Source of the DNA: Trebouxia sp. TZW2008
Taxonomy: Eukaryota; Chlorophyta; Trebouxiophyceae; Trebouxiales; Trebouxiaceae
Reading direction: 5' to 3'
Assembly (NCBI GenBank): GCA_002118135.1
Contig: BDIU01000045.1
Span: forward strand, 1-64,000
Length of the DNA stretch: 64,000 nt
Below the pieces are notes generated by a model that was given only the letters and a program-made list of their open reading frames with translations, was not told the DNA's origin and did not search any database. A program made the translations under genes and the position numbers. Each line of letters opens with the position of its first letter. Positions within the stretch are counted from its first letter, which is position 1. Of this stretch, positions 7,893 to 64,000 are shown piece after piece.

Positions 7893-8158
7893 GGCGATAG
7901 GCGACGGAGGTATCGCGATGTTCACTACACACACTCTCGCTACGCCAGCGCTAACAAGAGAGAAGAAAAGAGAGAAGAGCCCGGCGAACAGTCGGCGAGA
8001 GGATGGCGAGCGACGTTGGTTCAACGGCCGCTTGTCTGTGGGTATTCTAAAAACCGTACTCGTCTAGCGTCAGATGTGGTGTAATCCAGAGATGGAATGT
8101 CCAGCATGTAAAATACTCTCTCTGTCTCGCTGCAGATCCAACAGCAGCGCCTGCAACT
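7893..8158. promoter_or_regulatory. Divergent spacer, recombinase / DnaJ
   Basis: 266 bp between two outward-facing starts, so both promoters must lie here. It contains repeated AGAGAAGA/GAGAGGATGGCG purine tracts and CG-rich hexamers (TATCGCGATG). No TATA box is evident. It also marks the border between the island and the cellular gene block. Confidence 0.4.
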
Positions 8159-23447: not shown

Positions 23448-26400
23448 ATGAAGGCAAAGCTGCACTTTTTGGAGAATGATGATGTGCCGTCCATCCTCAA
23501 TCCCGCCGGCCCCGCCCCGCATATCGCTGGCACAAAAGTGATAGCAACGATCGGTCCAGCATGTCACGAAGTGGAGCAGCTCGTGGCACTGCTAGAGTGC
23601 GGGATGTCGTGCGCGCGAGTGGATCTCACAGTGGGTGTAGTGTGTTGCAGCTAGACATGGCAGGCTTGTTGTCAGCCGAACAGGCTGAACTAATATGCAA
23701 CCTGACTTATTGCTTGCAGTGGGGCCCAGTGGACTATCACAAGAAATCCCTGCAAAACTTGCAGCTTGCTATGAAGCAGACCAGAAGGCTGTGTGCTGTA
23801 CTGCTGGACACCCTAGGTCGAGAGCTGATGATCCGCCGTAGCTACACTCTGGATGAAAAGGGCTGGCCCAAACATGAGGGGGCTTTTGAGGTCAAGAGGG
23901 GTGCAGAAGTCACTGTAACAACAGACATGGAAGCTGTCGCCTCCAGCAGTTGTCTGCCTATCACTTACCCAAACTTCCACAACTTAGTGAATGCTGGAGA
24001 CACCTTGTTTGTAGGCAGGTAAAACATTTCAAAAGCAAAGCAAGCATCAAAAAATGTTTGCTCCTTGTAGAGCATGCAGGAGCTCCTTGAGTATGGCTTG
24101 GTGTTCTGTAGATACCTTGTAAGCGGAGCAGATGAGTCCTCACTGTATCTGGAAGTCACAGCTGTGGATGGTAACAATGTTAAATGCACAGCACAGAATG
24201 ATGCTGTCATGGATGGGCTGCTAACCGTGACTCACCACTCAGCAAATGAAGAAGACATGTCTTCCATGCAAGCAGACCTGCCACTGCTGAGCGAGCATGA
24301 TGTGCATGCCATCAGAGATATCACATCCCAGTTTGAAGTGGACTTTGTTGCTTTGACATTCACACGGGATGGCGGGGATGTTGACACCATGCGTGACTTT
24401 CTGGACAAGCTGGGCCTTGAGCAGACCAAGATCCTGGCCAAGGTAAGCATCTGTTCACTTGAAAGCAACCAGTGCAATCTGACCAACTCACTGCAGCGGC
24501 TCACTTAAGCTCAAACTAATCTGCGAGCATCCAAGTTTGGATGATGTCCACTGGTTGCCATCGTGTCGGGTCAAGACTCTCTTGCTGCACAATGCAGGCA
24601 ATGCGTTGGGCTGCTTTTGTCTGCATCTCAGCAGCTGCCTTGCTGTCAGTGATACCACCATTCAGCGCTGACACTGGCAAATGGGACAAGCAGATATGCA
24701 ATGTCAGCAGCTGGTGTCAGCAGCGCATGCAGCAAACAACCGTCCACAGAAATCTGCAACTTCAAAGCATTCGTCAGCAGCAGCAGCTTTAGCAGCTCAC
24801 GCTGCTGACACACGCTTCAACATTCCGCTAGCAGTAGTTGGTACTCCCCGTTGGTGTAGCAGTTGTGTGGTGGTCTTACGCTTCGTTAACGGCAGCCGAC
24901 GCAGAATGCAGGTGTACAGCGTGATTTTGATGCTGAGTCAATAAGAGCAGCTGATGCTGCATGCAGGTGGAGAACAGGGCAGCGCTGTACAACTTCGCCA
25001 GCATAGCCACAGCTGCAGATGGCGTTGTGATCAGCCGCGGCAACTTGGGCTTGGATGTACTGCCTGAGAAGATGGCTTTGGTACAGAAGGATGTTGTCAG
25101 CAAGTGCAATCTGTTGGGCAAGCCGGTTATCATCACACGTGTGGTGGACACAATGGCTACTGCCCCACGCCCCACTAGGTACCCCTCTTCAAGACCCCTA
25201 ATCCTTCTGAGACTCCTTTGCCACTTGAACCCCATGCTTGCTTACACCAAGCAGGCCCCATGACATGAATGTGAATACATGTGTAAGAAGTGCAACTTGA
25301 CGTAGCGTATTGTCCCAGCGCTGATTGACTTACCCGTGTGATGAGTGCACGGCTTCCACACATACTGGAGCATCAAAGCATACCATATGTGTGTACACTT
25401 GCAGCATGGGCACCACCAGCAGCAACTGTAATTTGTGGGCAGCCTGGCATACAAGCATTGTGGACACAACTGAAAAGCATGCATGCAGGGCAGAGGCCAC
25501 AGATGTTGCAAACGCTGTCCTAGACGGGACTGATGGGTTGCTACTAGGGCCAGAAACCCTGCACCATCTGTACCTTGTGATGGCTTGCCACATCTTCTGT
25601 GTAAACGCATTTGCAAAGCATGCATGCATGGTAGAGGCCAAAGAGTTGCAAATGCTGTCCTAGGTTTGAATGATGGGTTGCTGCTGGGGCCAGAAACCCT
25701 GCACCATCTGTACCTTGATATAGCTTGCCACATCTTGTGTGTAGACGCATTTGCAAAGCATGCATGCAGGACAGAAGCCACAGATGTTGCAAATGCCGTC
25801 CTAAATGGCACTGATGGGTTGATGCTGAGGCCAGAAGCCCTGCAGCGTCTGTACCTTGGTATAGCTTGCCACATCTTCTGTCTAGATGCATTTGCAAAGC
25901 ATGCATGCAGGGCAGAAGCCACAGATGTTGCAAATGCCGTCCTAGATGGCACTGATGGGTTGATGCTGGGGGCAGAAACCCTGCGTGGCAAATACCCTGC
26001 CATCACTGTGAAGACAGTGCTAGCCATTTGCCGCCAAGCTGAGGAGGTCTTTGACTACTCTGGCCACTATGAATGGCTGACATGGCAAGGGGAGAAGGTA
26101 TGCTGCATCATCGCATGGATTGCAACATCAGGTGCAAAAGTAACAGCCTGCATCATCAGATAGCTTGCTGTGTGCATTTCTGCATTGTCTCCCATATTGC
26201 ATCATCTGTATCCAGCTTTTGTGCGTTTCAGCAATGTCTGATATGCGAAGACGCTTTGTGTATGGCTTGGCCTCGTCTGCCTGCAAAGTGATCTTGCTAT
26301 ATCAGTCTCTGTCCAGTAGGGCAGAGACTGATACAGCATCATTGGCAGCAGCAGCAGCAGCAGAAGGAGCAGCATTGGCATCAATAGCGTCATTTGCAGC

Positions 26401-29400
26401 AGCAGCAACAGCAACAGCAGCAGAAAAACAGCTGTAGCAACAGCAGAGCTACTCAACATCTCATGTCAGTTGCTGACTGGCTTGTGTTTGCAATCCGTAT
26501 AGTGCATCAATGAATGCGCATAGCATTGTATTTGTGCCTGACAGGAGCACAGAGCAGCATCAGCATCATCGATCATTCACATGCTTGCCAGTGAAGATGC
26601 ATGACCCTGCTGGGTGCCTGTAGAAGCCATGAACTGCCTACAAACAATTCTGTCCAAAGCCACTTTGTGCCAGCGCACATCAATCCACAACTCACTCTGC
26701 ACATAGGCTGTTCTGCACATAGGAGGACAGAGCGTTGAGGCAGAAGCGCAACACAAGCAGCGAGAGTGAAGAGCTGCAGGACCTGGCAGGTAAGCATTAG
26801 CCCAGCTGATCTGTGCAATGCACACACAGAACCATCTATGCTGTTTGGCGTCATGATGGGAGCTTCTATGGGCTGATGCAGCCCGACAGTGTATACACTG
26901 ATATACGCTCGGATGTGTCCTATTATGCATTGCTCAACTTACACATGTAACTGAACATGATACGCAAATTGGATGTGTACAATTGCACATAAATAGTGCA
27001 TGTTGCAGCTTTAGTTGATTACCATGCATTACATATCTTCAAATTTGTTATCATTCTTATGCCTGTTGATGTGCTGTGTTGATGATTACTGTCTATCATC
27101 ATTATTGCCAAAGCTATTGCTATTGTTGTTTCAATAGTTGGTCCTGTGCATTTTATTATTGTTGTTTTGATCTTGACTGCTGTGCAGGGTCGCCACTGGC
27201 TACAGTCCAGTCCGGTGTGACAAGTAGTGCGCCCGGTCAGCAGCCACAGCAGCACACAGGCTCCCCCCTGGGGCGCCCCACTCGCACCAGCTTTGATCAG
27301 TCAGACCGGCCGCCTGCCAGAACAAGCCTAGACCAGCCAGATGCCTCACTGCCGCCCTTGCATAAGCCAATGCAGGGTACGCCAGTTGCCGCTCTCTTGA
27401 ACAATCATAAAAAAGCCAGCACAATTTTGGACAGTTTCGGCTCCACCAATGTTTTTTGATCAAATTTTGATTGTCGACCTCATGCCTCCTGCTTGCTGCT
27501 GGCCATGCCTCTGTTGTTCGGCCCCTCCTTGACCACAACACAGCCATAGATTCCCCTCACACCTCACCTGGTATGCTCCTTGAGCCAATGACTCAAATTA
27601 GTCAACGATGCCCAAATATGTACGCTGTACATGGTAGCAAGTACTTTGTGTTCAATTGTAATCAGCGCTGAAGGCAGCAGGGTAGGCCATAGTGAGCCTG
27701 CTGGCCCAAGTAAATTGGGGTGTTAGTGGGGGGTTTGCCCAAGGTTTCCAGTTTTGGCAGCCTACGATGCTGCCTCATTGATCGCTTGACTGATTGATTG
27801 AGTGTATTCTTGACTGCAGGCAAAGCAGCTGGTGGAGCCTAGAGGCCTGGGCGGGGGACTGGCAGGGGGGCTGCCCAGGCTTTTCAGCTTTGGCAGCCTG
27901 CCTTGCAGCCTGAGTGATCGCTTGCTTGATTGCTTGATTGTGTGCACTCTGAACTGCAGGCAAGGCAGCAAAGGGGGCGGCCATGATGAGCCTGCAGGCC
28001 CAGGCAAGGGTGGCGGGGCTGGCAGGGGGGTTGACCAAGGTGTGCAGCTTTGGCAGCCTGCCACACAGGCTCAGTGATCTAGTGATAAGTGCAATCTTGA
28101 CTGCAGGCAAGACAGCAGGAGGTGCAGCCATGGTGAACCTGCAGCCCCAGGCAGGGGCAGGGGTCTGTTGGGGGTTTTGCCCAAAGTGTCCAGCTTTGGC
28201 AGCCTGCCACACAGGCTCAGTGATTTGTTGATTAAGTGCAATCTTGACTGCAGGCAAGACAGCAGGAGGTGCAGCCATGGTGAGCCTGCAGGCCCGAGCA
28301 GGGGTTGGGGGCCTGGGTGAGCTGCCCAAGGTGTCCAATTTTGGCAGACTGCTGCGCTGCCTCAGTCATTGCTTGATCAATTTGTGGGTTGACTGCTTGA
28401 TGGGCTGATTGGTTGAGTGCATGCTTGACTGCAGGCAAGGCAGCAGGGGGAGCAGCCATGGTGAGCCTGCAGGCCCGAGCAGGGGTGGGGCCCCTGGGTG
28501 GGCTGCCCAAGGTTTCCAGCTTTGGCAGCCTGCCACGCAGCCTGAGCGACCAATCCATGCGCAGGAAGTCCCTAGAGGAGCCCCGCCCTGCCCTGCCGTT
28601 CACCTCCCAGCTGGACAAGGCAGAATCCATCGCCTCTACTGCAGTCAGGACAGCAGATAAGATCAATGTGAGTTCATGACTCTTAGGGCAGCAAAAGAGA
28701 CTGCTGTAAGCTTGATGCATGAGTCGCCAATCCTTGCGCTACATGTCCCGAGAGGATCCTCGCCCTGTCTTGCCGTTCACCTCTCAGCTGAACAAGGCAG
28801 AATCCATTGCCTCCACAGCTGTCAGGACAGCAGACAAGATCAACGTGATTCCATGGCTGTTAGGGAAGCAGATACGATTGTTGTGACCATTATGCCTGAG
28901 GGACCAGTCTATGTGCAACAAGTCACTTGAGGAGCCGCAGCCTGCCCTGCCTGTCACCTCCCAGCAGGACAAGGCCGAGTCCATTGCCTCCACTGCTGCC
29001 AGAACAGCAGACAAGATTGATGCAAGTCTGCTGCCTAACTGATGCTAGGGCATTGTTAGTACATACACTGCTGTCAGGACAGCAGACAAGATCATTGTCA
29101 GCTCATGCCGTGATTGCATCAATCGTTGATTCACAGCTTCAGTACTGTTGAACTCCACACAAGGTATGCTGTTAGGATGGTAGACAAGATGAGCGTGAGC
29201 TCACGCCTTGACTGTTGTTGAAACAGCATTTCACATTACTGTTTGGACAGCAGACAAGATCAATGCAAGTTCACAGCCTGCCCTGCTCTTCACCTCCCAG
29301 CTGGGCAAGGTCAAGTCCATTGCATGCAGTGCCATCAGGACAGCAGACAAGATTGATGTGAGCCCCATTTCTGACTGCTGTAACAATCTGTTTGCATGAC

Positions 29401-31542
29401 ATGCTCTGCAATCAGCGTAATTGCGTTGGCTGCACCCTTTCGTTGCAACTGCTATCAGGACAGCAAGCATCATCACCGTCATGTGACCGTCCAACTGCTG
29501 TCAGGACAGCAGACAAGATCAATGTGAGCACATGCTTCAACTATTTAGGATCGCAGACTACAGCCTGACTGCTTTCAGAACAGCAGACAAGACCAGCGTG
29601 GCTCCACAGTCTGTCTTTTGTCAGGACAGCACACAGGATTGCTGTCAGGATGAATGTGAGATCAGGGCCTGACTGCAAACAGGACAGCAGACAAACACAC
29701 GCGAGTGCCTGTGCAGGCTGATCATGATGTATGCTAGCTCTGGTGGTCAATTATCAGCCCAAGATGCCCATGGTGTATGCTACCCTGGTGGTCAACTATC
29801 AGCCCAAGATGCCCATGCAGGCAGGACTGGTCATAGTGTGTCCAAATTCGGGGGGGGGTGGTGGGGGGGGGGGAGGGCATGGCTANNGGGGGGGGGAGGG
29901 CATGGCTAGCCTGATGCAGCTGCAGGAATAGTAGCTTAGCAGGCAGGACTGATCACAGTGTGTACTACCCTAGTGTCGCTGCAAAAGCGCTGCAATTGCT
30001 GTGTAGGCAGGACTGATCGTGGTGTATGCCAGCTCTCAACGCATGGCCAGCCTAATTCAGCCATCCACTTGTTGTGTAGGCAGGACTGATCATAGTGTAT
30101 GCTAGCTCTGGGCGCACAGCGAGCCTGGTGGCCAAGTACCGCCCCAAGATGCCCATCCTGACCCTAGTGGTGCCCCACCTCAAGAGCTGGACCCTCAAGT
30201 GGGAGCTGCAGGGCCGCTCCCTCGCCCGCCAGTGCCTCATCATTCGAGGTATGGGATTGTTATAGGGTTTGCACTTACGTTGTTGCATGCACAGAATCAA
30301 AGCGCAACTAATGTAGCTCAACATGCCAGGTGTGTGTTATTGCCGCAAAACATGCTGCACTTGATGACAAGATGAATGTAGCCATGAGCATTGTTTGAAG
30401 GAATGGCTCTGTGCCTAGCCAGCATTGTCACCACAAAGCAGACTTTATTGCAGCTTTGATCTGCTGGCTCAACAGCTGAGGATGTGATCAATGCAACAGT
30501 GAAATCTTTTACCGAACCTGCAGTTGGTGTTAGACAAAGTACAATTGCAGCTTTGATTTACTGGCTTGACAGCTGAGGGTGCCAGCATTGACATCCTCAT
30601 CATTGTTGCTGAAAGCGCAGGTGTGACTAGAGTATGTGAGAGTCCGTTTGCAGCGTTGATATTGGGACTCATCAGCTGAGTAGTGTCTTAACATGAAGAG
30701 CTGCACATGCAGGTGTTGTACCCATGCTGGCAGCGCCGGGGTCTGGCAGCAATGAGAACATGCTACAAGAAGCTGTGACAGCGGCTGCAAGGCGTGATTT
30801 GGTGCGGCCTCATGACCACGTGGTGTGCGTGATGAGCATCAAGGACAGCCTGGTGGTCAAAGTGGTTACCCTGGACAGCATTGGGGCGCGCTGCATGAGG
30901 CATGCCGACTCTGCACAAGGTTTGAGACTGATCTGTTAGAAAAGATAAAAAAAAGAAAAGTCTACGCCGTTAGGCGTCATAACGGGAGCCTCTGTCTAAA
31001 GAGGCAGCCTGGGACTGAACTGTTACTTCACGAGGGCATGAGCAGCACAGCCCACACCTAAGCTGATGCATATGCTACAGAATGCTGCACAGGATACATC
31101 ACTTACAATTGCTTGTTGTAGGCTGTCGCTCCTGTAGCGCGTTGAGTTGTATTGTCAACAGTTTGGGAAGCTTTGTCCTTGCGCACAATGGACTCTGCAC
31201 ACTGGCAGGCAGGGGCTTACTTTTGTTGCCTTTCTAGGGTTTTAAAACAGCATGCAATTGCATTGATGCTGCAAAGCACTGTTGCCTGATGTGGTGGCAA
31301 TTGCACACAGGACTGCTTTGTGCCTGTACTGATCAACAGCAGCTATTGATCTGTTGCATTATGCCAACAAGTGATGGGCTGCAATGCAAATTGATAGCTT
31401 TGAGGTGTGTAATGCAGGGTCTGAAGTGGATTTGGCAAAATTTGCTGACGTAGCGGATGTGTCCAAGGGTGGAGCAATCTTGGCGCCAGAGATCAAATTA
31501 GACAATGAGCCACTGCCGTCGCGTGTCACAGCTCCCGCCTAA
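23448..31542 (+). CDS. PK: Cytosolic (plant-type) pyruvate kinase, 733 aa, 11 exons
   Basis: Exons 23448-23630, 23720-24018, 24112-24442, 24967-25178, 25911-26097, 26723-26789, 27188-27376, 28435-28667, 30080-30248, 30713-30919 and 31418-31542 join in phase to 2202 nt. The enzyme converts PEP + ADP to pyruvate + ATP, the last step of glycolysis. Visible family signatures: [11 protein letters not shown] at the N-terminus, [12 protein letters not shown] (metal-binding Glu), [15 protein letters not shown] (plant cytosolic RGNLG), [57 protein letters not shown] and [21 protein letters not shown]. Exons 6-8 add a Ser/Pro/Gln-rich insertion of about 130 residues not present in usual 500-aa cytosolic forms. 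Exons 5, 8 and 9 have tandem splice-site echoes in adjoining introns. Start: ATG at 23448 opens an in-frame exon of 61 codons. Confidence 0.93.
25489..26051 (+). repeat. 141-bp tandem array: three echoes plus true exon 5 of PK
   Basis: Units start at 25489, 25630, 25770 and 25911 (periods 141, 140, 141). Each holds GCATGCATGCAG and then about 80 bp matching exon 5 ([16 protein letters not shown] coding). Copies 1 and 3 keep an intact CAG acceptor and a GTACCT donor exactly 81 nt later, a multiple of three. Copy 2 has ATG for CAG and a 1-bp deletion just inside the exon. Only copy 4 continues into CTGCGTGGCAAATACCC, the real exon. Parts of copies 2-4 are open in one frame. Confidence 0.95.
27671..28560 (+). 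repeat. Six-copy array ending in true exon 8 of PK (left side)
   Basis: Acceptor positions (last G of TGCAG or equivalent) are about 27671, 27819, 27959, 28106, 28253 and 28434, spaced 148, 140, 147, 147 and 181. Each unit reads GCAAGGCAGCAGGGGG..., then CCAAGGTTTCCAGCTTTGGC and CTGAGCGATC, encoding variants of [14 protein letters not shown] and SFGSLP. Between units lie short T-rich, TTGATTG-rich intron ends. Only the last unit runs on into the conserved [17 protein letters not shown] exon. The two pairs with a 147-bp period are the most alike. Confidence 0.92.
28668..29705 (+). repeat. About ten echoes of the 3' end of PK exon 8 with its 5' splice site (right side)
   Basis: Two nearly full-length copies (about 28740-28848 and 28905-29023) repeat the stretch from CTTCACCTCCCAGCTGGACA to GCAGACAAGATCAA and a donor-like GTGATT or GCAAGT. 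Shorter copies of GGACAGCAGACAAGATCAAT + GTGAGC follow near 29078, 29180, 29258, 29350, 29460, 29507, 29585, 29635 and 29685, with growing divergence. Many keep a plausible donor (GTGAGC, GTCAGC). Confidence 0.9.
29712..30079 (+). repeat. Echo array upstream of PK exon 9
   Basis: Partial copies of the exon-9 start GCAGGACTGATCATAGTGTA, each after a (T/G)CAG or GTAG acceptor, occur near 29715, 29819, 29942 and 30006, plus an internal duplicate of TATCAGCCCAAGATGCCCAT at about 29753 and 29800. The true exon begins at 30080. The last two spacings are 64 and 73 bp. Confidence 0.88.
29850..29900. other. Poly-G tract with two undetermined bases
   Basis: Long G runs interrupted by a few T/A, repeated as GGGGGGAGGGCATGGCTA, with NN at 29886-29887. 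The unresolved bases sit inside the exon-9 echo array, so local copy number may be mis-assembled. The G runs could form quadruplexes. Confidence 0.9.
30964..31005 (+). other. Two adjacent perfect hairpins in PK intron 10
   Basis: ACGCC-GTTA-GGCGT (30964-30977) and GCCTCT-GTCTAA-AGAGGC (30988-31005) lie 10 bp apart, right after an A-rich tract (AAAAGATAAAAAAAAGAAAA). They are inside the intron between exons 10 and 11. Could be a small structured RNA or a fossil of one. No C/D or H/ACA boxes are clear. Confidence 0.35.
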
Positions 31543-32141
31543 TTGCCATGTTACATTTGTAAGATAGAACTGTCATCCGTCAGATTGAAGATCAAGTCCT
31601 GTGACTTGTTCAGCAGTGCATTTCAAGTTAATTCAGAGATCAGGCTGTGGAAAGCCCTATTCAACAGGGCCCAAGGAGGTATCCCGAGACATCATTCAGT
31701 CATGCAGTCCTTTTAGCTTGCAAAGCGTTGCTCTGTAAATGGCATTGCTGAAAAGAGATAAAAGTTCGAGGCTATAGTACATATGCGTGGTGTAAAATAT
31801 TCTTGACGTGCATGCTCAGAGACATAGCTGAAGACTCATTGTACAATCCTTCCTGATGCAATCTGAAAATGTACAAGCAAACCATTTGCTGACTCAAGCA
31901 GGACCATGCCCTGTGGAACTTTGATGACGTGTCAAGTTGTCACGCTTCTTAAAGCCTGCTTTGGCTGCTGAACGCTGTACTCAACAAACTTTGAAAGACA
32001 TCAGCTCTCTATGCAATTCTTGGGCTACTTCGACTCATGCAAGCTCCTAACATGACATCCAACGACCTAAGCTACTCTTATAGATACTCTGTGCTGTTTC
32101 TGCTATTCCGAAATGGCATGCCTCTTCACACCGCTGAAGCT
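31543..32141. other. Convergent 3' spacer, PK / PI31
   Basis: 599 bp between two stops facing each other. It carries both 3' UTRs. No gene supported. No clear AATAAA is seen; TGTAA-like motifs (used as poly(A) signals by green algae) occur near 31557 on the plus strand. Confidence 0.5.
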
Positions 32142-34675
32142 TCAGCCAAACATGCTGTCCCAGTCTGGGCCTCTGCCTCGCCCTGGTTGCGCCATGTCAG
32201 GGTGTATTTGACCTGGCTGCCTCTGAAAGTCATCTGGATTGAATCCCTGAATGGCAGTAGGCATGCTTGCAGACTAGATCACTGACAGCTGTGTCAAAGA
32301 TAGGTTTTACGCAAGATGCTGCTCAAACATGACAAGACTCCATGCATGAACCCCTGCAAAGGTGATGACTGAATTTGGTACAGCTCGTTGGCAAAGCTAT
32401 TTGCTGCATGCAGAGCACCACCCCAAATTCAGGCTGTTTCTCTCACAAATGCCCCCGTTATTTACCTAACAGCAAAGAGTTTCCTTTTCTTCTGCTAGAG
32501 AAGCAGAGACTCAACATGACCAACCCTGTTTTGACTGCATCAATAATTGAGGTGCATAGGTCTTACCGGCATGCCAGGTGGGCCTATAGGGTCATATCTG
32601 GCACCAGAGGGATGGGAGCCTGGCCGTCCAGGTCGCATGCTGCCCCTGCCTGCACATGCATCAACCACTCAATCAGCAGGCGTGTACTGTCCCAATACAA
32701 GACCCAACAGAGGATCAAACAGAGAATGTCAACTCTAACTCTGTCAACATAATGTGTTTTTTTTGAATTCCCAGTATCACAGAATTCCCAGTCTCACAAA
32801 GATAATCAGACATGCATTCAACAAAATGGCATTGCCATATCAGAAACCAACCAGCAAAGAGGGGGTCGTCTGGGCCCATGTGCATGCCCCCTGACCTGCC
32901 CAGGCCGCCAGGGAAGGGCTCCTGCAGACCTCCATAGCCTGGAGGCTGGAAGCCTGGTGGCACTACGTCATGAGTGCCAATCATGCCACCAGGCGGCTGT
33001 GCTGTTCTTGTAGGTTCTGCAAAGCATGTGTGAGCCTGTTGGTGTGCAATCCATGACAGCAGCAAGTCTTGCTTTCAAGGGCTTGCATTGCTTGGCTTTG
33101 CACTGGTTGACTTGTGGAGGGTAGGACTGTCACTAACACCGTGCAGGTGCGAATTCAGCTTACACAGCCAAAACATTGCCAATTGAAGCTATGCAATCAA
33201 CAGTCACTTGCTTAGGCTGTAGACAGCCAGTCTGTTCAAGGGTCCACCATGCTGTAAGCATGGCAGGTAATGTTGTTCTCGTCATATATGGGTTCCTCTG
33301 GCAGTAAGGTGTATTAGTTGATCTAGACCTTGAGGGAACTCCTCATCTGGAGCACAATAATCAGGAGGGGGCTGTTGTTTGATGTTGCCTGCTGCTATGC
33401 GTTGCTTGGCTTGCACTGATTGAGTTGCAGAGTCCACAACTGTCACTAGCACTGAGTAGGCATGACTTTAGTTTGCACAGCCAAAGACACTGCCTTTCAA
33501 AGCCATGCAACCTGTGCTCAGCTGCCAGGCTGTAGACAATCAGTCTGTTTAAGGGTGCAGCTTGCTGTAAGCGCAAGAACTGCTGTTGGTCTTTTCACGT
33601 ATGGGTTCCTCTGACAGTAACTCCATATCTACTTGCTATACTGTTTTACTACTATGTATCTACTGATGAGTACAGAAGTGTTGGTTGATATATACCTTGA
33701 GGAAACTTGTCATCTGGAGCACCATAATCAGGAGGCGGTTCTTGTCTGGTGTTGCCTGCTGCTGTGCGTGCGTTGCTGCCCGCAGCTGCTTGCTGAGCAG
33801 ATTGCGCTGTAGAGTGACGGAGAAGGGGTATTTGGCTGTGAAGCTTGCTGACAAGGTCGTCCAGATTTTGATAGCAAGCAGGCAGCTCTGCACAGACAGG
33901 CAGCTTCAGCGGCAGCAGCAGCCACAGATGCTGACATACTGTGACAAACCTGCTCCAATCCTATTCATACGCATTGCCTTTGGTATGGGTTGATGTCTTT
34001 GGACACTGTTTTGCCCTGTTGAAAAGGAGCAGCTGCGGACCAGTCAGCAACAGAACAAGCAGCTGTTCTGCAGGTACAGACCTGTTTGTGATGTGACATA
34101 GTGATCAATGTCCAGCTCAAGCTGTTGAGGTTCCTGCTGAGCTGAGTTCAGAGTCACCCAATTCAATAACAGCTGTTCTCCCAGGACCACTCCTTTCAGC
34201 ATGATAGGAGCCTTGATCGCTGCATCAGAAGCACATTTGTGTGTGCGTGTGGTCACGCTTCTGCACTAAAATGCATAGTAACAAGACATGCTTCTGTGTA
34301 CCTCCTTTCTGCCATGGATCAGGGTTGTAAAGAAAGGTATAGGCATCCGAAGCAGAGTTCCAGTTGTTGAAGTCTGCAACGCTGTCTTGGCTTTCCACAG
34401 ACCCTACGAATGAATGTTTCTTGACGTTCAACGTGCTGCACGTCTCAGGCTGACGCTACTGTGATCTACGCACCTGCTGACGAAGCGCTTTCGGCGTGCT
34501 CGCCGACGGCCTCAAGTTTGAATCCCTCCGCAAGCATGCTTGTGTGCACCGCGAAGGCGACGCGATCAGACTTTGACCTGCGAGCGGACGCAGGGACCGG
34601 TGAGCGTTGAGTGCTACCAGGTCTGCTGCAGGTTGAACGGCTCTCGACACACCTAAAGTTTGGCCGCGTTGCCAT
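32142..34675 (-). CDS. PSMF1: Proteasome regulator PI31
   Basis: Exons 34675-34474, 34403-34302, 34219-34082, 33887-33696, 33016-32852, 32649-32567 and 32216-32142 join in phase to 318 residues. The N-terminal PI31/FP domain shows FAVHTSMLAEGFKLEAVG, DFNNWNSASDAYTFLY and LDIDHYVT. The C-terminal Pro/Gly-rich tail is diagnostic: VVPPGFQPPGYGG, GGMHMGPDDPLFAG, GARYDPIGPPGMP, IHPDM and terminal GRGPDWDSMFG. PI31 binds the 20S proteasome (in vitro inhibitor, in vivo assembly/transport adaptor) and FBXO7-type F-box proteins. Start chosen at the ATG that leaves a short N-terminus; an in-frame ATG 33 bp upstream is possible. A phase-compatible 63-nt duplicate of part of exon 4 lies in the next intron. 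Confidence 0.9.
33066..33740 (-). repeat. ~310-365 bp tandem duplication in PI31 intron 4, including exon-4 end
   Basis: Blocks near 33066-33365 and 33370-33740 match in order: GGCTTGCAC..., CTGTCACTA, GCTGTAGACA(G/A)(C/T)CAGTCTGTT, TATGGGTTCCTCTG(G/A)CAGTAA, then CCTTGAGG(G/A)AAC(T)..TCATCTGGAGCAC. The first matching landmarks are 312 bp apart. A 50-bp insertion in one copy makes the last ones 367 bp apart. The duplicated exon piece (about 33393-33331, minus) encodes QQPPPDYCAPDEEFPQ, against EPPPDYGAPDDKFPQ in exon 4. Confidence 0.88.
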
Positions 34676-35085: not shown

Positions 35086-38000
35086 ATGGATGCGCGACAG
35101 ACAGCTGTTGAAGGACCTGCATCGGACATAGCCATCCCACCCAGCCTTGACGAGTATGTGCCGTCTGACGCATCAGTACACAACACAGACACAAGGAGTC
35201 AGCGGGTTATATCTCAAGGGAACCAGCCTGTGCGTTCCGAGGTTTGGCAACTTGTGGCATTGAGCCAGCTCCCTGACTAGCAGATCCTGCTGCATAGGTA
35301 TTCTGGCATGCACATGTAGGTGCAGTCCCTTGATAAAATTAAATTTGCTGAGGGCCTACACATAGATCAGTATGCATCTCAGCTTGTAAAGCTTCTGCGG
35401 CACAGAAGTGACGGCGCAGATGCCTTGACTAGGGCGCCCCTGGTTGAACATATCAAACTGGAGGCAGATGGCCTTGCCTCCAATGCTGACCCACACACCA
35501 CCCTTGTTTGGCAACTCACAGGTACAGTCAAGCCTGCTAAGGCATGACTGCCTGTTGAGACAAGTTTTGCTTTGTGTGTGACGCCTTTGACGATTCTGAT
35601 GGTTTCCTTCATGAAACAATGCATGAAAGTCATTCAGTAGCACAGCAGCTGTTTCTTCTCTCAAAGATACTGTTGTCTTTGTTACCCGCAGAACACCCAG
35701 CTGTTGCACAGGCCATGAAGCAGCACATTCAGCAACCAGCTTTTGGCCAGGAGTTAGATGCCATCTGTGCCTGGTTCTATGATTGGTGTAGAAGCACTTC
35801 CCCTCTGCTGCAGAGATTTGTAGCTCGCCATGCTCCTGAGCTTGCAAAACGTCACCTGTTGCACGCGTTGAGCACAACCGAGACACAACCTCTGCCTGGC
35901 CTAGAGGTAGACACCCCAGGCATATCAGATTGTGTACTTCAGTTGCTGTCTGCAATGTTGCATCGCCATGTCACCTGCGTTCACTGATCCTTAGAGTCAA
36001 TCGGGCAACCTTGCCTCTTGCCTGAAGTCAAAGGAACTGACCCTTCTTGTCAGCAAGATGTTGATCTGCCACCAGCGAAATGTACAAGCAATGGCTGTCA
36101 GTAGCATCCCTCAAAACTGCTGTATAATATTTGTATGTGTGCAGGCTTGCCTGGTAGCGTTGCTTGAGGCCAGATCTACATCAGCAGACTTCTTCCGCTT
36201 GCCTGACTTGTCTCAGCCCTCTGTGCATCACAGTCCTCTAAACCCCAATGTCACCAAGGTGAGCACAAACCTCATGCCCATCTCCTGTCTTTTTCAAGGG
36301 TACAATGCATCGCCTCAAGCTCATTGCCTGTGCATGAGTGAGTGTAAGAGTAGCAGCAGCACATCAAGTAGCACAAATCTTATGTCACAGGGCTCGTCAC
36401 GTCAATTGATTGATTGATTAAATTGACACCTGTGCCCGTGCGCACGCGAGGTAGGTAACAGGTATGCCTCACCCTGTTCCTGTAAACCATACAGCCTCCA
36501 TCATGCCAATGCTCACTGCCACCTGCATCTTCTTGCTTGCCTCCCACATCTGCATGGCAGCTGCTGGTGTACAATGCTGCAAGCATGCATGCTGATGCTC
36601 GTCATAGGCTGGAAAGCCCAATGCCATCGGCAAAGTCTGCTTGTGTGTTCCTGACACTTGAGACCAGAAGCAAAAGCTGCTGGCACTCATTTCAATAGCA
36701 ACACCTTATGCTGGCTAGTGTCAGAAGGAACCCAAAGCCACCTGACTTGTCAAGCAGGTCATTGTTGTGAAGGGCTGCAGGAGTCGAAACAGCCCAACCA
36801 GATCCCTTATAGTCACACGTTCATGGCACATGGCTGGCACACAACATTGGCTGCTGTTGATGCAGGGCTCTGGCAAGCAGGGGCTGGTGCGGGAGGACTC
36901 CATTCTTGGAGTGGCGCCTCCCACCTACAGCATCTTGCCTGCTGGTGTGGCAGCCCTCTTTGGATCTTCTGCCAAGGTGCCTCCCCTCTGCTGTCCTTGA
37001 TGGAGGCACGTCTTGCTGTGCAATGGCAGGGCATCAGTACTACGTGCCAGGCATTGTATCAGGAGCTGTGCAATGGCATGGCATCAGTTCTGCCTGCTTG
37101 GCATCTTATCAAGGGCTGTGCAACGGCGTGACATCAGTATGAGGTGCTGTCATTGGATAGCGGACTGTGCAAAGACATGATATCAGTACTGTGTGCTTGT
37201 ATCAGGAGCTGTGCAATCAGTACTGAGGGCTTGACATTGTATCAGAAGCTGCATTTTGAGGGCTCCATACCAAACTAGCTCACACAATCAAGCATGTGTA
37301 TAACCTCTATGCATGCCAACATACCCATGTCATTACACTTGTCACAAATGCCCAGCTGAACCTCTCATTGTGGTCTTGCGAGTAAGTCCCTTACGTGTAA
37401 CAATGTATTGGTGTCAGATCTCAATGTCAGGCTGCATCACAGAATGGCAGTTTGCAGACAGGTCATGTCAGGATATTGGCTGGCATGCAATCATGGCAGC
37501 GCAGTGCCATGGCAGGTGCAGCGCTGCAGTCCTTTTGCAGCTGGATGGTAACCTTCACAGATGCTGCCATTGAGGACTTTGCCCATGTGGCCGTTGGCCT
37601 TGCTGCTGCTGGCTGCCCTTGGTTTCAGCCTGAGACCCAGCGTGTCTTACAGGTATTGCATGGCATGATAGGTGCTGTGACTCAGCGTGACTTGCAGGTG
37701 TCGCATGGCATGACTGGTGCTCTGACTCCTTGTGCAGCACGTGAAGGACTGCAGCAATGATCGCATGACACATCTGCAGTTTATTGGCAGTCAATGCAAG
37801 AGCTCATGATGATTGTGGCAACAGCACTACGCATATGCTTCTTGGCTACGATGGCAAACATTGTCGCTCAACTGCAGCCTTGAGTGCTTGCTTTGCAATT
37901 TTGACTGCTCGTAGTGTTCAAGCTGTGTTGTGCTGTCCTGTCCTGTGGCGTGCTTGGCATACACCTGAAACTTCTGCCCACCAGCCTGTTCTTTGAGGGA

Positions 38001-44442: not shown

Positions 44443-47400
44443 CTAAGCTGTTTGACGCATCTGTTTTTGGAAAGCTTCTAGCACGTTGATAGTTTGCCCT
44501 GTTTGCGTATCCAAAACTAGACATTGACTGGCACCAGATGGTAACTCAACACCACTCTCAGCATGCTCAGGAGCATCAGGGTCCAGACCAAAAGCCCTGG
44601 ACCGCTGAAGCAGTTTGCACTCATTCTCAACATGTGTGATAGCAACCCTGGGACCATGCCTCATTTTCCACAGCTCAAGTGCTTGTCGCCTTGGTGCATA
44701 CAACACCAGATGGAGGCTGGATGTGTACACTGCATCACTGTCAACAGTGTCATCAATCTCTTCTATAGCTTCTATCTTTTCGTGCTGTTCTGCTTCAGCC
44801 CTCCGCCTTTTGCCAGCATGAGCATGACTGAGACTTTCATGACGCTCAGAGTTCTTGGCAGTCCCGACTGTTGTGCATGTGACCCATCCCAATTGGGCAT
44901 CTCTGTAGGATTTCCACATGCGGATGACGGTCAGACTGGCGACATCAATGAGCAGCACTCGCCCCAGTGAGTCACTTGCAACCGCTAAGGAGCCCCTGTA
45001 GCAAAATTTGAGCGTTTGCAGCAGTCCTCGACAGCAAGTGTTGTCTGCGCTCTAAGTGCAGCATGCCAAAGCAAAGCTTTACGCATGCATAAGCCAAAGT
45101 GCATATGCTTGATATGACATGGGCCATTTGATGCGTGCAATGAACAGCCACGCTGATGCAGATCCGGAATGTGTTATGTGATTAGCCTGAGTGGCTATGG
45201 ATCCTCGCCAATGCAGCTTGCAATGGCAACAACTTTGTGACCGGACTCCAAAAGCAGGATGTAAAACAACTGAATGCTTTGGCCACTTTGACTTTCACGG
45301 CTTTGTGTTGATGAGTGTGCTTTATTGCATGGCAGCAGGCAATGTCAGGTTTCAAATACTGTGGTCACACACACCGGGCACTTATGCTAGAAGGTGTGCT
45401 ACATGGTCACTTCGTTTGAAGACTCGGAAGTTACGCAACTTCTCAATGTGAGTGGGTGCATCTCAAAGACATGCATCCGTGTTCACAGATAGCGTTTCAA
45501 GATCAATTTTTGCACACAATGTATCCTGACACTGGCATGTGAACGGCAATACCTTGGTGCCAGCAGCAACTGCTCAACAGCTCTTGGGCCATCTCGCAAG
45601 CTCCTGAAGAGGGTGACAGGCTCGCCCTTTGGCAAGTCCTCGTCTTGTGCATCTCTTGGGGAACCTGGCTGGTCTAGATTCACCTTGGCTGCCACCCAGT
45701 TGCGGATGCCTGCATGGTGCCGGCATTTGTTGCTGCAGAAGCGCTTGAAGGCAGCACACTGCTTCTGCATGTATCTAGCAGCTTTACAGAAGCTTGACTG
45801 CTACCCAGTTGCAGATGCCTGCATGGTGCTGGCGTTCGTTGCTGCAGAATTGCTTGGAGGCAGTATACTGTTTCTGCATGCACTTAGGAGATTCACACAA
45901 CCTTGGCTGCAACACAATGCATGTGCCTGCGAGGTGCTGCCCAATGTTGCCACAGAAATGTTGATTGGTGTCCTATGATATGAATGCGAGTGATCGCGCG
46001 CCTCAGCTGATGATGAGCTGAGTGGATCTGAGGCTGATTGCAGAAATGTTTGAAGGCAGGTTGTTGCTTCAGTACGCATTTGGTGGGGTCACCAAACCTC
46101 ACCAGCAAGCATGAGAATCATGCACAGCTACAAATCGAAGACAGAATCACGGAAATGCCAGACTAGCTGAAAATCCTGACAACAATGTATTTCAGTAGTA
46201 ACGAACAGGGTGGACTCATTTTGGTCACTCTTGGTGTGCCCATGAGAGGCTGTGCAACCTGTCAGACCTTGTCTGTAGCCTGACTGGCGCCCCCAGGCTG
46301 CAGCCCTAGCCACCCCCAGCACCCCACTTGCCACAGATGATGCCAGACCAGTCACAAAGGCCAAGCTGCCCCTCTGCAGCACCTCTTCTGCTTCGTATGC
46401 TGCTAGCGCTGGGTCCCTGCAGCTCACTCAATTTATCAACAAAGTCACTTTTTCTTGTGCTGCTAGCACTGAGTCTCTGCAGGTCACTATATTCGTGGAC
46501 AATTTGGCTTTACCAGAGGTTGATTTGAAACTTAGATGCGTACATAAACGCTTGAGCTGCTTGAGTGCCATTGCAATGTCACAGAACAAGGGCTGTGTTC
46601 TTGCTTGTGGGTTGCAGCAGTAAGTTTTTGACTACCAAATGCAGGCAAGGCATTTTGCAGGCCTTGCCTCCAACAAGGCAGATCTTTCATAAGCATACAA
46701 AAGTTGAGTTTGCAGCTGCACATGCAGAACTGTGCCTTTGAGTTGGAGACTCTTGACTGCTCCCAAACCTGTCTGGCTGGGTCTTTTGGGCCCGCCTGGC
46801 ATGCGTTTTCAACAGATGAATGGATTTATGAATAAATGAGTGTGTCACCTGCCAGATGTGACAAGCAGTAGCTTTGATCTGCTTTCTCTCCCTGTGAGTG
46901 AGCCATACAAGCTTGGAGGCTTGCGGCCTGCGTATATGCCTGCTGACCTAGGCCCAGCTTTCCTCAGATCCCATATGTTGTATGACAATGGTGCAGTGGC
47001 GCTGTTGTCACCCCAGCGTCGGTTTTGTTCCTGTCGCCGGACCAGAGACCGTATCTCAAACGATGATAGCTTGACAATGGCGTCTCTGAAAGTGATGGTG
47101 ATGTCTTCTGATCGGTCATCAGGATCTAGGCCTGCACAACAGGCAAGTGTTGACCATTCATATGCTGAGCCAAACCAACATATCACAATTGAGTTTGTTA
47201 CCCTTGCCAGGTTGCTATGCGCAGTGAATGCATGGTGTCAGCATGTGCATGCAGTTGTAACTTACCCTTTCCAGCTGTACGTGCTTGCACACTTTGGGCC
47301 TGACTGGTGTGTATTCTCTGCCTGTGCAGAAGCAAACCATCCTCAGCGTGCAACTGCATGTAGCCCAGAGAAGATCCCAGCACCAGGCAGCAATCTTGCA

Positions 47401-48498: not shown

Positions 48499-51400
48499 CT
48501 ACTCAGCCAAAGGCGCAGCGACTTCAGCTGTTTGTGGAGCGGAGGATCTGCCTGCTCCTTTACCCCTGCCCCTACCCCCATCTCGACCCCCCCTACCCCT
48601 GGGTACACCCTGCCCACCAGTGCTTTGACCACCTCTGCCTGCCTGACCTCTGTCAACCCCAGTCTGTTGAGCATCATCTGGGAATGAGCCAGAGCCTGAT
48701 GCTGGTAATGGGATTGGGCCTGTGCTACCCCTACCCTGATAGCCACCCCTGTCACCGCCCCTGCCCCTGCCAAACCCACCATCACCCCTGCCTCTGTCAC
48801 CACGACCATAGCCTCGGCCGCCTCCTCTGCCGCTGCCAAAGTTTGCACGCTTGGGGGTGATGCTCAACTGCATGCAAAGCAGGCTGATTTGACATGCTGA
48901 CATGGCATGCAAAAACACCGCACGCAAAACCTGAAAGGCCTGAGTCTGATGGTGCACTGGTTCTGGTCTAGATCTGACGTGCCACAGCATAGTGCGAGGA
49001 GCTCAAAGCATGCAAGTACAGGCCTGTAAACACTCACTAGTGAAGCCAACGCTCCTTGTCAAGTTGTATATAACTTAGAATAATACTGGTTGGAAGGCAT
49101 TGCATGCATTGCCAGCTTTAGCATAGAGTGTCACACATGCAGTCATAGCACTTCACTTCAAGTTTGACTGCAATGCAACTAATGCACCTGGAATGGCATG
49201 ACAAGATGCAGGCACAGCCTGTTATGCAGGCAACTCTCCAGATGCAGCTCAGTGCAGGGTTGACTGCAATGCAACTGATGCAACCAATGGCCTTGAAAAG
49301 GAAGGATAAGGTGCAGGGCTTACAATGTTGTCCTTCAGCTGCACTTCCTTGGCCTCAATGCAGGCCTGAGCAGAGGCCACATCCACAAAGTCCACATATG
49401 CAAAGGAGTTGTTGTTGCCGTTGTGCTTGACTGTAATGGCACCGCTGCCGGCCTTGACAGTCCCAAACTGGGTGAACAGCTCCCTCAGCTCGTCTGATGT
49501 GGCATCCTGAACACCAGTGAGTTACCCTGAGTGCTGCTTCAGATATTGTACACAAGTATCTGACAAAATGAACCAACGTGATGCAGGTGCAAGCTGTTGA
49601 AAGTCGCAACACATTGGCACCAATGCATCAGACATGACATGCAAATGTACAGGAATACTGATGGTTGTCACAGACAATATGGTAATTCACTGCTGCACAT
49701 GTTGCTGGGAGCGCTGTCAGGCAACGGCAAGTGAATGCCGTGACTGTGAAAACCTGTGAAGCCATGCATGTATTTGTGCACTTGCAAGCATTTACAAGTG
49801 TCTGGTCTACACCGGTGACACCGCACACTGTTGTGGCTGGCTGGCACACAACAGCCAGCCACACAAGCCAAACAGAAGGGCTGAGTTCATGCTGTACAAG
49901 CCAATTGCTTACCAACAGTTCCCATGTATTGGAGCTGTGCGCCAGCATTTCAAACTGTCAGCTCAGCAGTTTGTCATGTCACGCTTTCGCAGTGATCATA
50001 ATGCCCAGACATCAAAAAATTCAACAAATGGCCAGCCATTGATGGATTTCATTGTAAGGCGCAAAAGTAAGTTGACTTGAGATAAGTCCGCATAGGTGTT
50101 TTGCATGAGAAGTTGGAAACACACCTGTGGCAGGTTCCTGACATACACAGCCTTCTTGCTGGAGTCATCATCTCTGTTGTACTGCACGCCCCGACCGCCT
50201 GGAGCATTGTAGGGGGGTCTGACTGGGGGGCCCTCTGACCCCACAGGCCTGAGTCCAGCTGACTCACCCTTACCAGCAGCGTCAGCAGCAGAGGGTGCTG
50301 CAGCGGTTGCTGGGCCAGGCCTGCCTTGACTACGGTTGCCACCGGGCCTGGGTGCCAAGGCAGGTGCTGCGGCAGTGGATGAGGAAGGTGGTGGCATCGG
50401 GCCGGTGGGTGCAGCAGGGGGGGCTTGGGAGGGGGGTTGGGGACGGCTAGCAGAGCGAGGGGCGCTGGACGGTGCATTGCCTCCTAATGCAGCTGCAGCA
50501 TTCTCCTTGGCTCGCAGGCTGTCAGCGTATGACTTGGGGGCAGATGGGGTGGGGGCTGCGGTCGGTGCTGAGTTTTGCTGCTGGCTGCCCTTCTTGTCGG
50601 CTTCCTGCAGAACATCAAGCTGAGTTGAGACATGTAGACTGACGAGACCATCAAACTGGATTGAGACATGTAGACTGGTGAGAACATCAGACTGGGCTGA
50701 GGCATGTAAACTAGCCAAAACGCTGGACTGGGTTAAGACATGCATACTGACCATGGTAGACGCTCAAGCAGGCTGTGCCTTTCAGAGGCCAGCACCTGCA
50801 GTCCAATGCTGCTGCCGCGACTGTCTGCAGCTATGCAACAAGCAGGGTGCCTGCAGCTAGATAGAAGCAATATTTGATGTGAACCTGCTGGCATGCGAGC
50901 ACAATGCTGTCAGGCAGAGTGTACAGTATACTGTTGATAAAAGTTCATTCAGCAAAAGAAATTTTAAATTGTATGTCAAGGAAAATACAGCTGCATATGC
51001 GGTACCTCCATGTAGTGACAGACTAATATAGCAGCACTCTGCTTGGTAAACAGCACAGTTTTCAAGGAGAAGATACAGTACCTGTGGTGCTGAAGGGCGT
51101 CGCTGTGGCTTGACAGGTGGGCGGTTCTGGTCAACAGCAGGCTGAGGTACTGGCTGGTCACCAGAGGGGCCCTTCTGCTCAGTGAGCGGTTGCTGCTGCT
51201 GCTGTTGACTGGAGGTCTGGTCAGGCTCAGGCTCCTGCTCAGAGGACTCCAGGGAGGGGGCTGTGGGGGTCTGCTGAGCAGGGGTGGGGGTCTGTGTGAC
51301 TGAGGGGGCTGAAGGCTTGGGTGGTGGGGGTGGCAGACCCTGCACAGTCTCACTAGTCAGCCACATTGCTTCACCAGGAAGACAGTCAATGTCAAGCTGC

Positions 51401-58110: not shown

Positions 58111-58303
58111 CTTGCCCTCGTCGCACCGGTTGTGCAAGCGTCCTCAACGCCAGAGAGGAACGCACACACAGGGCGGCTGTTGGTTTCACTCCCAGCTTCC
58201 GTGAAATTCAGAAGTCCCCGTAAACACGGAGAGCGTGGCTCGCAGATTTGAATTCCCTGCATGAACGCAGAAGTGCTGCCAAGATGAAGCAAGAATCGAC
58301 ATT
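58111..58303. promoter_or_regulatory. Divergent promoter, RPL26 / PIG-Q
   Basis: 193 bp between outward ATGs. No TATA box. GC-rich in the middle; a stretch ACACGGAGAGCGTGGC lies near 58225. The short distance implies a shared nucleosome-free region. Confidence 0.5.
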
Positions 58304-60603: not shown

Positions 60604-60690
60604 TAAACAAAGGCTTCGTATCTGTGGCGACTGGCATGGGACTTAGCAAAAGCCATCTGTTTGAATTCAAATGCTGCAAAGTTATAGCGT
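60604..60690. other. 87-bp convergent spacer, PIG-Q / RAD23
   Basis: Two stop codons only 87 bp apart on opposite strands. The 3' UTRs must overlap, so antisense pairing of the two mRNAs is expected. Confidence 0.7.
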
Positions 60691-63600
60691 TTACATCATG
60701 TCCTCAGTGGAAGATTCAAGCAAGAAGTTGGCTGCCAAAGCTTCATTTTTGTCACAAGCCAAGAAAGCCTCAATGCAAGAATTCCTGTCAAATCCCATAG
60801 CTTCTAATCTGCCAATTGACTCCATCTCTGCTGGTGTCAAAGCTACCTGAACCCCGCCACCCTGACCCATGCCTGCAATCCACTCATGTTAACAGCTTGA
60901 AATACAATTAATCCGTACAATGATCCTCTCAGCAGTTCCGAAACAGCATCAGCTCTACCCTGAGCAGATTTTGCACATTGTTTGCTCCGCCGTCAATGCA
61001 TATTAGCCAAACATTAGAGCTTTGCAGGCCACAAGACGCCAGCAACACTTTTTGCAAAGAAGACAAGATTGTACCTCCGCCCCCTGCAGCACCTGCTAGC
61101 TGGGCTGCCAGGTCTGCCATGTCGCCTCCACCCTGAGGCGCAGGCTCATTGATCATACGCAGAAACTCCTCCTGATTGGCATTGATCATCTGCAGTAGCT
61201 CTGGGTTTGACTTGCCCAGCTCCTGCAACACACAAGTGTCAAAGCCTTTTTCCTAGCTTCAGCAACGTGGACAACTTTGAAGCACAGCTACTGTGACTGC
61301 GAGTAGTTGGAAAAGCTGTCAAAGCTCAGGGGAATAATGTGTGATAATCAATTGACAAGACACATAACAAAAAGGAAAATTGACATGAGGCACACCTGAA
61401 GCATAGGTTGCAAGATCTGTGGATTGGCCTGAACAATCTGTCGCAAAGCCTGAAATTGTTGGTTGCTGCGCAAGAACTCCAAGCTGCCTCCACCAGCTGC
61501 CGCACCAGCTTGACCAGCACCTGCACCGGCTGCTGGCTGAGCCTGCATGATACCAAAGCACCTTGTCAGCCGCTTAAATATGGCACTGAAATTAGAACGC
61601 TGGCGGAATCTGCATGAGACCTGCACTTGCACCCCCTGCTGGCTGGGCCTGCATGACACCAGGACCTCATCAAGAGCTGAAGTTGGCACTGAGACCAGAA
61701 TGCAGCGCTAACGCATGGCTCACGCATACTACGGCTACCCATCATTACTGACTATGAGGAGCAGAATGCTGGCTGAGCCTGCATGAGACCAGCACCTTTT
61801 CATGGAATTGGAGTTGACACTGAACCAAAATCTTTGTATTGCTCAAATTGTAAGCATTCTGCCATAGCATCTTATTGAGTGCTTGGGAATGGTACTGAAA
61901 TTTTGAACTCTGACGTGTTGCAGTATCTGGACAATTATCTATACAAGATCACACACACAGCAGTTCCTGTCAGATTGGGCTTTTGCTCAGGAGAAAGTTC
62001 AAGATCATGCTAGACCAGCATGATTCACAGCCCTTGCAGTGTTATGATTTTGTCTGACAGGCGACTGCTGGAGGGTGATGCAGAGAAAGGTGGACTTCAG
62101 GGCTTGCAAGCACCTGTAGCCAACTGCTCCATGATCCGCTGTGATGTTGCATGGCTGTTCCGTACAACAGATCAGCATGTCTCTGATAGCCAGCATGACA
62201 TCAGTGACAGGGTGTGTGAGCATGATAACAGCACACGTCAAAAGCCCAATGCATATGGACGCCGGGCATACCTGTGGGTTGAACATGTCCAGTGGCTGTG
62301 TATTAGGCCCAGCTGGGGCTGCAGGCTGCTGCCCTGGTGCAGCTGCCCCTGCGCCTGCCCCTACATCATGTTTAATACACAGATCAGGACGCTTTCACAA
62401 GCAGCGCCAGGCAGCGTATAAGTAACGTCAATTTCAACACTTGGTGAAGATGATTAAGATGATGAAGGCTTGACAGGTGAATCGATGCACAGGACACAGG
62501 CACTGGTGTTCATGTGATTCTGGCAATGATAGAACAGTAACACTGTGTTTTGCTTTAAAGCGCTGTGAGCAAGGCTGCCATTGTGCACTTTGAGCATATG
62601 GGGCTATCTTGAAGATGATCATCATGCATGTCCACTCTGTCATATGAAGCCTAGACACAGTGCCACAATGTAGCTAAAAGTCAAGAAGCATAACAGACAA
62701 CAAGCTTGTCAGAGCCCAGCAAGGATTGAGGTTGGATACACTTGGCAGACAACTGTATGCAACCACCCCTCCAACCTCCATGTCCAATATGGAATAGGTG
62801 AGCACAGGACCACACTGCTCGGAGACAATTGATTGCTCCAGTACGTACCTCATTGAGCCTGCTAAGCCTGTCTAGCATGCGTTTTGAAAGAATGAGCTCA
62901 ATGAAGCATTGAACGGCAATGCAGGAGGGGTACCTGGGGCAGCACCACCTGGGGCAGCTCCAACAGGTGGGGCATCAGCACCAGGAGGAATGCCAGACAT
63001 CAGATACTCCACAGCCCGCTCAGGGTTGTTGTATGCTGCCCGCATGGCTCTCACCACCTCCTCACGTGGGAAACCCATGTCCACAATCTGCGCTATGAAC
63101 CAAATGCTTGCAAGCGCCCATGACCTCATTGTATCTATGCATGCCATTACAATTTACAAGATCAGAGGCTACATGGGACAACCATGTCCATGTTCTGCAT
63201 CATGAATACGTTTCTGCTTGCAAGTGCCTGTGATCACAAACACAACCATGCGTGCTGTCTGCACTGATAAAGGCAGGGCAGCAGCTGACAGCAGAGCATC
63301 AATGGAGCATTTTGTCGCTGCTTAATCACCTTCTTCATGTCCTTAATCACCAATGAGACAAGAACAGGCATATTTTAGATGCTTGATCACATATTGCTGA
63401 TTCAGACTCCACATAAAGGTGTCTTTGGTCTCAAGGTGCCTTTGGTCAATTGTACCATCAAGCATTGCACGAGCTAAAATACCGCATACTGGCAGGATAG
63501 GCATTGGTGGACACGCACCCAGCCCCTGTGCTATGTAACATACTGTCATCACTATTAGCATAAGCAACAGTCTTGAATGCTGCAAGGGGCCTACCCCATC

Positions 63601-64000
63601 AATGCTTGACTTGAGACTATCACCAGTGGCCAGGTTAGATGCTGCTGAGGCATAAGGATCTCCACTGGAGGCAGGTGCAGCTGCTGCAGTGCTGGGGGTT
63701 GGTGCAGCTGCCGCAGCAGGTGCGGGGGCTGATGCTGTGATTGCTGCAGCTGGGACAGCCCTGCAAATCAGTGCTGCCAGCTTGCAGAACAAGCCGTGTA
63801 TACATGACAATGCTCTTGCATGCAAGACAGGCACTCCATCATGAAGTTGTGACAGGGATGAAGCGTATGCATATATATGCGTATGTATGTATGAAGCGCA
63901 CATGCATATGAGGCGTATGTGTATGACAGGGACCTGCTGGCTGAGGCTTGCGTTTGACAGCAATTGTATGACAAATGAAAGGGAAGTTGCTTACGATGAG
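60691..64000 (-). CDS. RAD23: RAD23 UBL-UBA shuttle, 3' part (5' end outside window)
   Basis: Exons seen: end of one at 64000-63995 (donor GTAAGC), 63760-63595, 63087-62934, 62360-62272, 61542-61396, 61222-61075 and 60872-60691. Order: Ala/Pro linker, UBA1 ([34 protein letters not shown]), Gly/Ala/Pro linker, XPC-binding domain ([49 protein letters not shown]) and UBA2 ([26 protein letters not shown]). The N-terminal UBL must lie beyond 64000. RAD23 carries ubiquitylated proteins to the proteasome and stabilises XPC/RAD4 in repair. A short exon before UBA1 is probably missing from my model. The exon at 61542 has two echoes upstream. Confidence 0.92.
61535..61795 (-). repeat. Echo array upstream of RAD23 XPC-binding exon
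   Basis: Minus-strand acceptors CATGCAG|GCTCAGCCAGCAGCCGGTGC (true, 61543/61542), CATGCAG|GCCCAGCCAGCAGGGGGTGC (106 bp upstream) and CATGCAG|GCTCAGCCAGCATTCTGCTC (a further 130 bp). Preceding intron pieces (TGGTGTC or TGGTCTC before CATGCAG) are repeated too. Confidence 0.92.

What the first reader, a model, noticed from the sequence alone, without database searches (positions are those of the whole stretch)
23448..63760. Recurrent 'splice-site echoes': tandem decayed copies of exon edges in introns of at least six unrelated genes
In PK, RAB3GAP2, the G3BP-like gene, RAD23, PI31 and hyccin, introns next to an exon contain tandem copies of that exon's own edge together with its splice site. 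Left-side echoes (intron end + TGCAG + exon start) are commonest; right-side echoes (exon end + GT) also occur. Periods differ by locus (36, 45, 60, 106-130, 109, 141, 147, 200 and ~310 bp), so this is not one dispersed repeat. In every case the intact copy is the one next to the functional exon body. Coding genes without homology share the pattern within 40 kb, so it looks like a genome-wide process in this lineage: local duplication anchored at splice sites (perhaps at TGCAG/CATGCAG microhomology), followed by decay of the outer copies. That would be a continuing source of intron length and new cassette exons. I know of tandem exon duplication in general, but not of such a recurrent splice-site-centred form.
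Basis: partly seen in the sequence, partly recalled or inferred. Interest (0 to 1): 0.92.

Follow-up and report, generated by a model that had tools for sequence, protein, structure and literature searches.

The report
Decayed exon-edge copies in algal introns
In this green-alga (Trebouxia-like) genome, short stretches of DNA are duplicated in tandem very often, and when a duplicated stretch straddles the edge of an exon the spare copy is left in the intron to decay; the repeats are real and abundant, but they do not need a special process aimed at splice sites.

Summary
In five of the six named genes (pyruvate kinase, RAB3GAP2, RAD23, PI31-like, hyccin) introns carry diverged tandem copies of an exon's own edge with its splice site; the 36-bp array of the G3BP-like gene holds intron end only. 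It is not confined to this window: in 242 kb (window plus 18 sampled ~50%-GC loci), 116 local tandem arrays cover 18.5% of the sequence; 314 self-matches score >=24, none in five shuffles. Pyruvate kinase of two relatives has one copy of each echoed segment. Outer copies decay neutrally (codon-position mismatches 0.160/0.152/0.267).

Array ends lie a median 77-78 bp inside exons, widely spread; TGCAG is not enriched at ends; unit lengths ignore the reading frame; other non-coding DNA (19.1%) is as rich in arrays as introns (19.5%). Units of 60-220 bp in genes with short introns must often straddle an exon edge: geometry predicts 29-41 edge arrays of 50, observed 41 (42 after correcting two known errors). 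An excess remains under most settings and vanishes under one. Best reading: pervasive short-range tandem duplication, filtered by purifying selection. Open: why so frequent, and why arrays above 90% identity are scarce.

The parts
25416..25984 (+). Acceptor-type echo array of PK exon 5, period ~141 bp, ~3.6 copies
   Evidence: relatives' PK aligns contiguously at 25888-26094, with partial matches at 25421-25573 and 25645-25713
25909..26097 (+). PK exon 5 (functional copy)
   Evidence: tblastn with P0001 and P0002
27640..28549 (+). Acceptor-type echo array of PK exon 7, period 136-147 bp
28434..28667 (+). PK exon 7 (functional copy)
28540..29665 (+). Donor-type echo array of PK exon 7 (exon end + GT), irregular period ~177 bp, decayed copies
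29713..30171 (+). Acceptor-type echo array of PK exon 8, decayed copies, smallest period ~46 bp
30080..30248 (+). PK exon 8 (functional copy)
30447..30680 (+). PK intron 8 array, period 97 bp, with no exon sequence: a counter-example to splice-edge anchoring
33084..33801 (-). Donor-type echo (one decayed copy, offset ~314 bp) of the PI31-like exon ending in CCTCAAG|GT
   Evidence: Pfam PI31_Prot_C below cut-off. The stricter alignment cut this array at 33620, so it counts as 'no exon'
37630..37728 (+). Donor-type echo of the hyccin exon 37522-37652, period 45 bp
42634..42784 (+).
   Evidence: exon itself only predicted
45682..46108 (-). Acceptor-type echo array of RAB3GAP2 exon 45553-45732, period 109 bp, 51 bp of exon in the unit
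46392..46511 (-). Acceptor-type echo of RAB3GAP2 exon 46268-46416, period 60 bp
50609..50753 (-). 36-bp array in the intron next to the acceptor of the G3BP-like exon 50125-50604; contains no exon sequence
61512..61824 (-). Acceptor-type echo array of RAD23 exon 61396-61542, period ~106 bp
14267..14676 (+).
   Evidence: exon only predicted

Best explanation
The nuclear genome of this Trebouxia-like alga undergoes, or underwent, a high rate of ordinary short-range tandem duplication (units mostly 40-220 bp) at positions that ignore splice sites. Because units are about as long as exons and introns, many straddle an exon edge. A duplication inside an exon changes the protein and is usually removed. 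One that straddles an edge is tolerated when the spliceosome uses the copy joined to the rest of the exon; the other copy then becomes intron, loses constraint and decays, sometimes after further rounds of copying. The visible result is an 'echo' of the exon edge and a longer intron. Shown here: abundance in all sampled ~50%-GC loci, broad breakpoint depth, no frame preference, neutral decay of echoes, constraint on the exon copy, single copies in relatives' PK. Inferred: that splicing skips the echoes, and the molecular step (replication slippage, template switching or unequal exchange).
For: 116 arrays = 44,822 of 242,092 bp; 314 matches against 0 in five shuffles and arrays in 18 of 18 loci. 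Echo against exon mismatch by codon position 0.160/0.152/0.267 over 112 echoes, 27 stops in 2,524 codons, 86 of 103 gaps frameshifting, 52 of 112 echoes with a stop or frameshift. Exonic part diverges less than intronic part of the same alignment (0.180 against 0.234; 31 of 42 arrays). Periods modulo 3 are 24/25/20 over 69 arrays and exonic depth is broad. Arrays cover 19.5% of called introns, 19.1% of other non-coding and 10.6% of called exons. Exon-internal arrays 3 against 13.7 expected. No TGCAG enrichment at ends against copy interiors. 99 of 105 arrays match nothing else in the sample. PK of relatives has one copy. Array-bearing edges also occur in homology-supported sampled genes: Arp3, ABCA-type and ABCG-type transporters.
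Against: With PK exons fixed by homology and the PI31 array restored it is 42 of 50 against 28.7, 31.1 or 32.1 (p 8e-6 to 4e-4), and 8 of 11 against 4.7 in the window (p 0.02). Placing units anywhere in the collapsed sample gives 63 of 105 against 24.4. The excess is also seen among arrays >=85% identical (11 of 15 against 6.4). Gene models come from my own small self-trained finder, so missed exons and echoes called as exons blur these tests in both directions. Arrays above 90% identity are scarce, which a constant-rate process does not predict.
Confidence: 0.7

Rival explanations
1. One reading: duplication anchored at splice sites through TGCAG/CATGCAG microhomology.
For: Acceptor consensus here is TGCAG|G; most arrays with period >=60 that lie in a called intron touch an exon edge (51 of 69).
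Against: Array ends lie a median 77-78 bp inside exons and are widely spread; TGCAG/CTGCA is no commoner at ends (0.142) than inside copies (0.137); donor echoes are not much rarer than acceptor ones (20 and 31); non-coding DNA outside called introns is equally rich in arrays.
Confidence: 0.07
2. Duplication breakpoints prefer exons (for example through codon-biased short repeats or transcription-linked breaks), giving a real but diffuse excess of edge-straddling units without anchoring at the splice site.
For: Residual excess: 42 of 50 against 28.7-32.1 expected after correction; 30 of 38 simple arrays against 22.6, p 0.003; still seen at >=85% identity (11 of 15 against 6.4).
Against: Two-copy arrays alone: 15 of 18 against 11.9, p 0.055; with the longest offset as unit the expectation is 40.6 and the excess is gone; shorter ancestral introns or missed exons would also raise the expectation; the conserved exon copy raises detectability slightly.
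Confidence: 0.2
3. Echoes are functional alternative or mutually exclusive exons.
For: PK exon 5 copies have period ~141 (a multiple of three) and partly open frames; my gene finder called some echoes as exons; 60 of 112 echoes have no stop or frameshift in the aligned part.
Against: 52 of 112 echoes carry a stop or frameshift, 86 of 103 gaps shift the frame, and mismatch at positions 1 and 2 (0.16, 0.15) fits one constrained plus one free copy; relatives' PK lacks them; by eye, outer PK exon 5 copies run on into the next unit without a clear donor.
Confidence: 0.03
4. A dispersed element (introner or transposon) or an assembly artefact makes the arrays.
For: 6 of 105 arrays have a match elsewhere in the sample at E <= 1e-4, so short dispersed repeats exist.
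Against: 99 of 105 arrays match nothing else in the 242-kb sample; the far-offset band holds no match scoring >=22 in the ~50%-GC sequences; copies mostly differ by 10-30%, which read collapse or mis-joining does not make.
Confidence: 0.01

Closest known systems
Internal gene duplication (Gao and Lynch 2009, as quoted in PMC7605655; passages of that paper seen, the original not seen)
   Same: Duplicated segments inside genes that include intronic and/or exonic sequence.
   Different: The quoted figure is 8-17% of genes; here all 18 sampled ~50%-GC loci have arrays, about one per 2.1 kb. Detection thresholds differ, so the contrast is qualitative.
[quoted passage not shown] review PMC3443670, passages seen)
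   Same: Tandem duplication of a segment containing intron end, 3' splice site and exon start.
   Different: In potato the copied piece became a new intron plus inserted exon sequence; here the copy stays inside an intron and decays, with no intron gain shown.
Tandem exon duplication and relic pseudoexons (recalled; only a search listing seen)
   Same: Dead exon-derived copies in introns.
   Different: Most edge arrays here contain only part of an exon with one splice site.
Introns nested in tandem arrays in human genes (Zhuo and colleagues 2007; recalled, nothing seen; the search returned no paper)
   Same: Splice sites inside tandem arrays.
   Different: That work, as recalled, claims new, often alternatively spliced introns; here introns are lengthened.

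Membership tests
Internal (intragenic) tandem duplication | Head-to-tail copies within one gene, beyond chance | tested here: met
   314 matches against 0 in five shuffles; none scoring >=22 in the far band of ~50%-GC sequences
Internal (intragenic) tandem duplication | Ancestral single-copy state in relatives | tested here: met
   PK proteins P0001 and P0002 hold one copy of each echoed segment; protein level and one gene only, says nothing of relatives' introns
[quoted passage not shown]
   No relative's nuclear DNA or RNA at hand
Functional tandem (mutually exclusive) exons | All copies keep frame and show codon-level constraint | tested here: not met
   52 of 112 echoes have a stop or frameshift; 86 of 103 gaps frameshift
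   Median exonic depth 77-78 bp; TGCAG/CTGCA 0.142 at ends, 0.137 inside
   42 of 50 against 28.7, 31.1, 32.1 or 40.6 according to assumption
Introner elements | Same sequence in introns of many unrelated genes | tested here: not met
   99 of 105 arrays have no match elsewhere in the sample; 6 do

The most novel reading that the evidence does not exclude
This lineage went through a burst of short tandem duplication with breakpoints biased towards exons, which set much of its present intron length and seeded its introns with decoy splice sites. The burst has since slowed, or young arrays are purged until divergence makes them stable, which would explain why arrays above 90% identity are scarce.
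Probability: 0.2. Interest if true: 0.7.

Novelty: new member of a known kind. Interest (0 to 1): 0.4.

Why it matters
It offers a countable record of how introns lengthen: each echo sets a conserved exon copy beside a neutral copy, so duplication age, decay and constraint can be read within one genome. It also warns annotators: a self-trained gene finder called several PK echoes as exons with posterior above 0.9. And it shows how a splice-centred pattern can largely arise from undirected duplication plus selection when units are as long as introns.

Tried and rejected
A first unsupervised gene-finder run found only 3% coding and was replaced by one seeded with exons recognised by eye in the window. 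The first self-alignment chained unrelated stretches and was redone with an X-drop (then 26); this cut the PI31 array short. Identities were inflated for overlapping copies and redone with banded alignment. My finder misplaced the acceptors of PK exons 5 and 7; the largest exonic depth (215 bp) is such an error. The edge test was therefore rerun with homology-fixed PK exons and the PI31 array restored: the excess grew slightly, so I moved 0.02 of confidence from the best explanation to the exon-biased rival. The detectability bias from a conserved exon copy was simulated and is small (edge:none ratio 0.41 to 0.46). Alternative-exon, dispersed-element and assembly-artefact readings were rejected (see rivals). 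Paper searches showed no title or abstract start reporting this pattern in Trebouxia; they cover open-licence PMC papers, and several lists were capped (for example 15 of 765, 15 of 249). The Asterochloris genome paper (passages) has no occurrence of 'tandem' in its main text. Ten window ORFs outside the finding had no Pfam match.

Full report
What the sequence is. The window is C44:1-64000 of a 68.5-Mb, 527-contig eukaryotic assembly. Its pyruvate kinase, joined by me from window exons, is 81% identical to an unnamed sequence (P0001), 77% to Trebouxia sp. C0009 (P0002), 60% to Myrmecia bisecta (P0003) and 70% over two thirds of its length to P0004, whose label I take from memory to be Asterochloris. 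It is a Trebouxia-like green alga; the species is not established. Splice consensus learnt from the data is CAG|GTGAGC and TGCAG|G.
Noticed in passing
L006, L016, L017, L018, L023, L024: Low-GC contigs (0.39-0.44); L016, L017, L018, L023 and L024 have many far-band repeats; a MinD/ParA-type gene in L018 and tRNAs in L006, L017, L018, L023 suggest organellar, perhaps plastid, DNA with heavily repeated spacers.
   Followed up: partly
window and the 18 ~50%-GC loci: Few arrays have copies more than 90% identical (10 of 105 by best pair), although simulated detection there is practically complete: burst, purging of young arrays, or assembly collapse.
   Followed up: partly
window about 30947 and 31009; L004 about 310-375 and 9348; L007 about 3381; L021 about 9044; L010 about 9514; L022 about 9808; L008 about 5277: Short dispersed repeats shared between loci at about 76-96% identity, one of them in PK intron 9: a separate, minor repeat class touching 6 of 105 arrays.
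   Followed up: no
window 30447-30680: PK intron 8 holds a tandem array (period 97) with no exon sequence, in the same gene as four exon-edge arrays.
   Followed up: no
window 2099-8063, minus strand: Predicted multi-exon region whose six tested ORFs have no Pfam match.
   Followed up: no
window about 29886: Two N inside a G-rich stretch within the PK echo region, the only unknown bases in the window.
   Followed up: no
L014 1982-2367: Low-complexity translations (IRSDQ and TV repeats) called as exons next to a kinase gene, probably gene-finder error.
   Followed up: no
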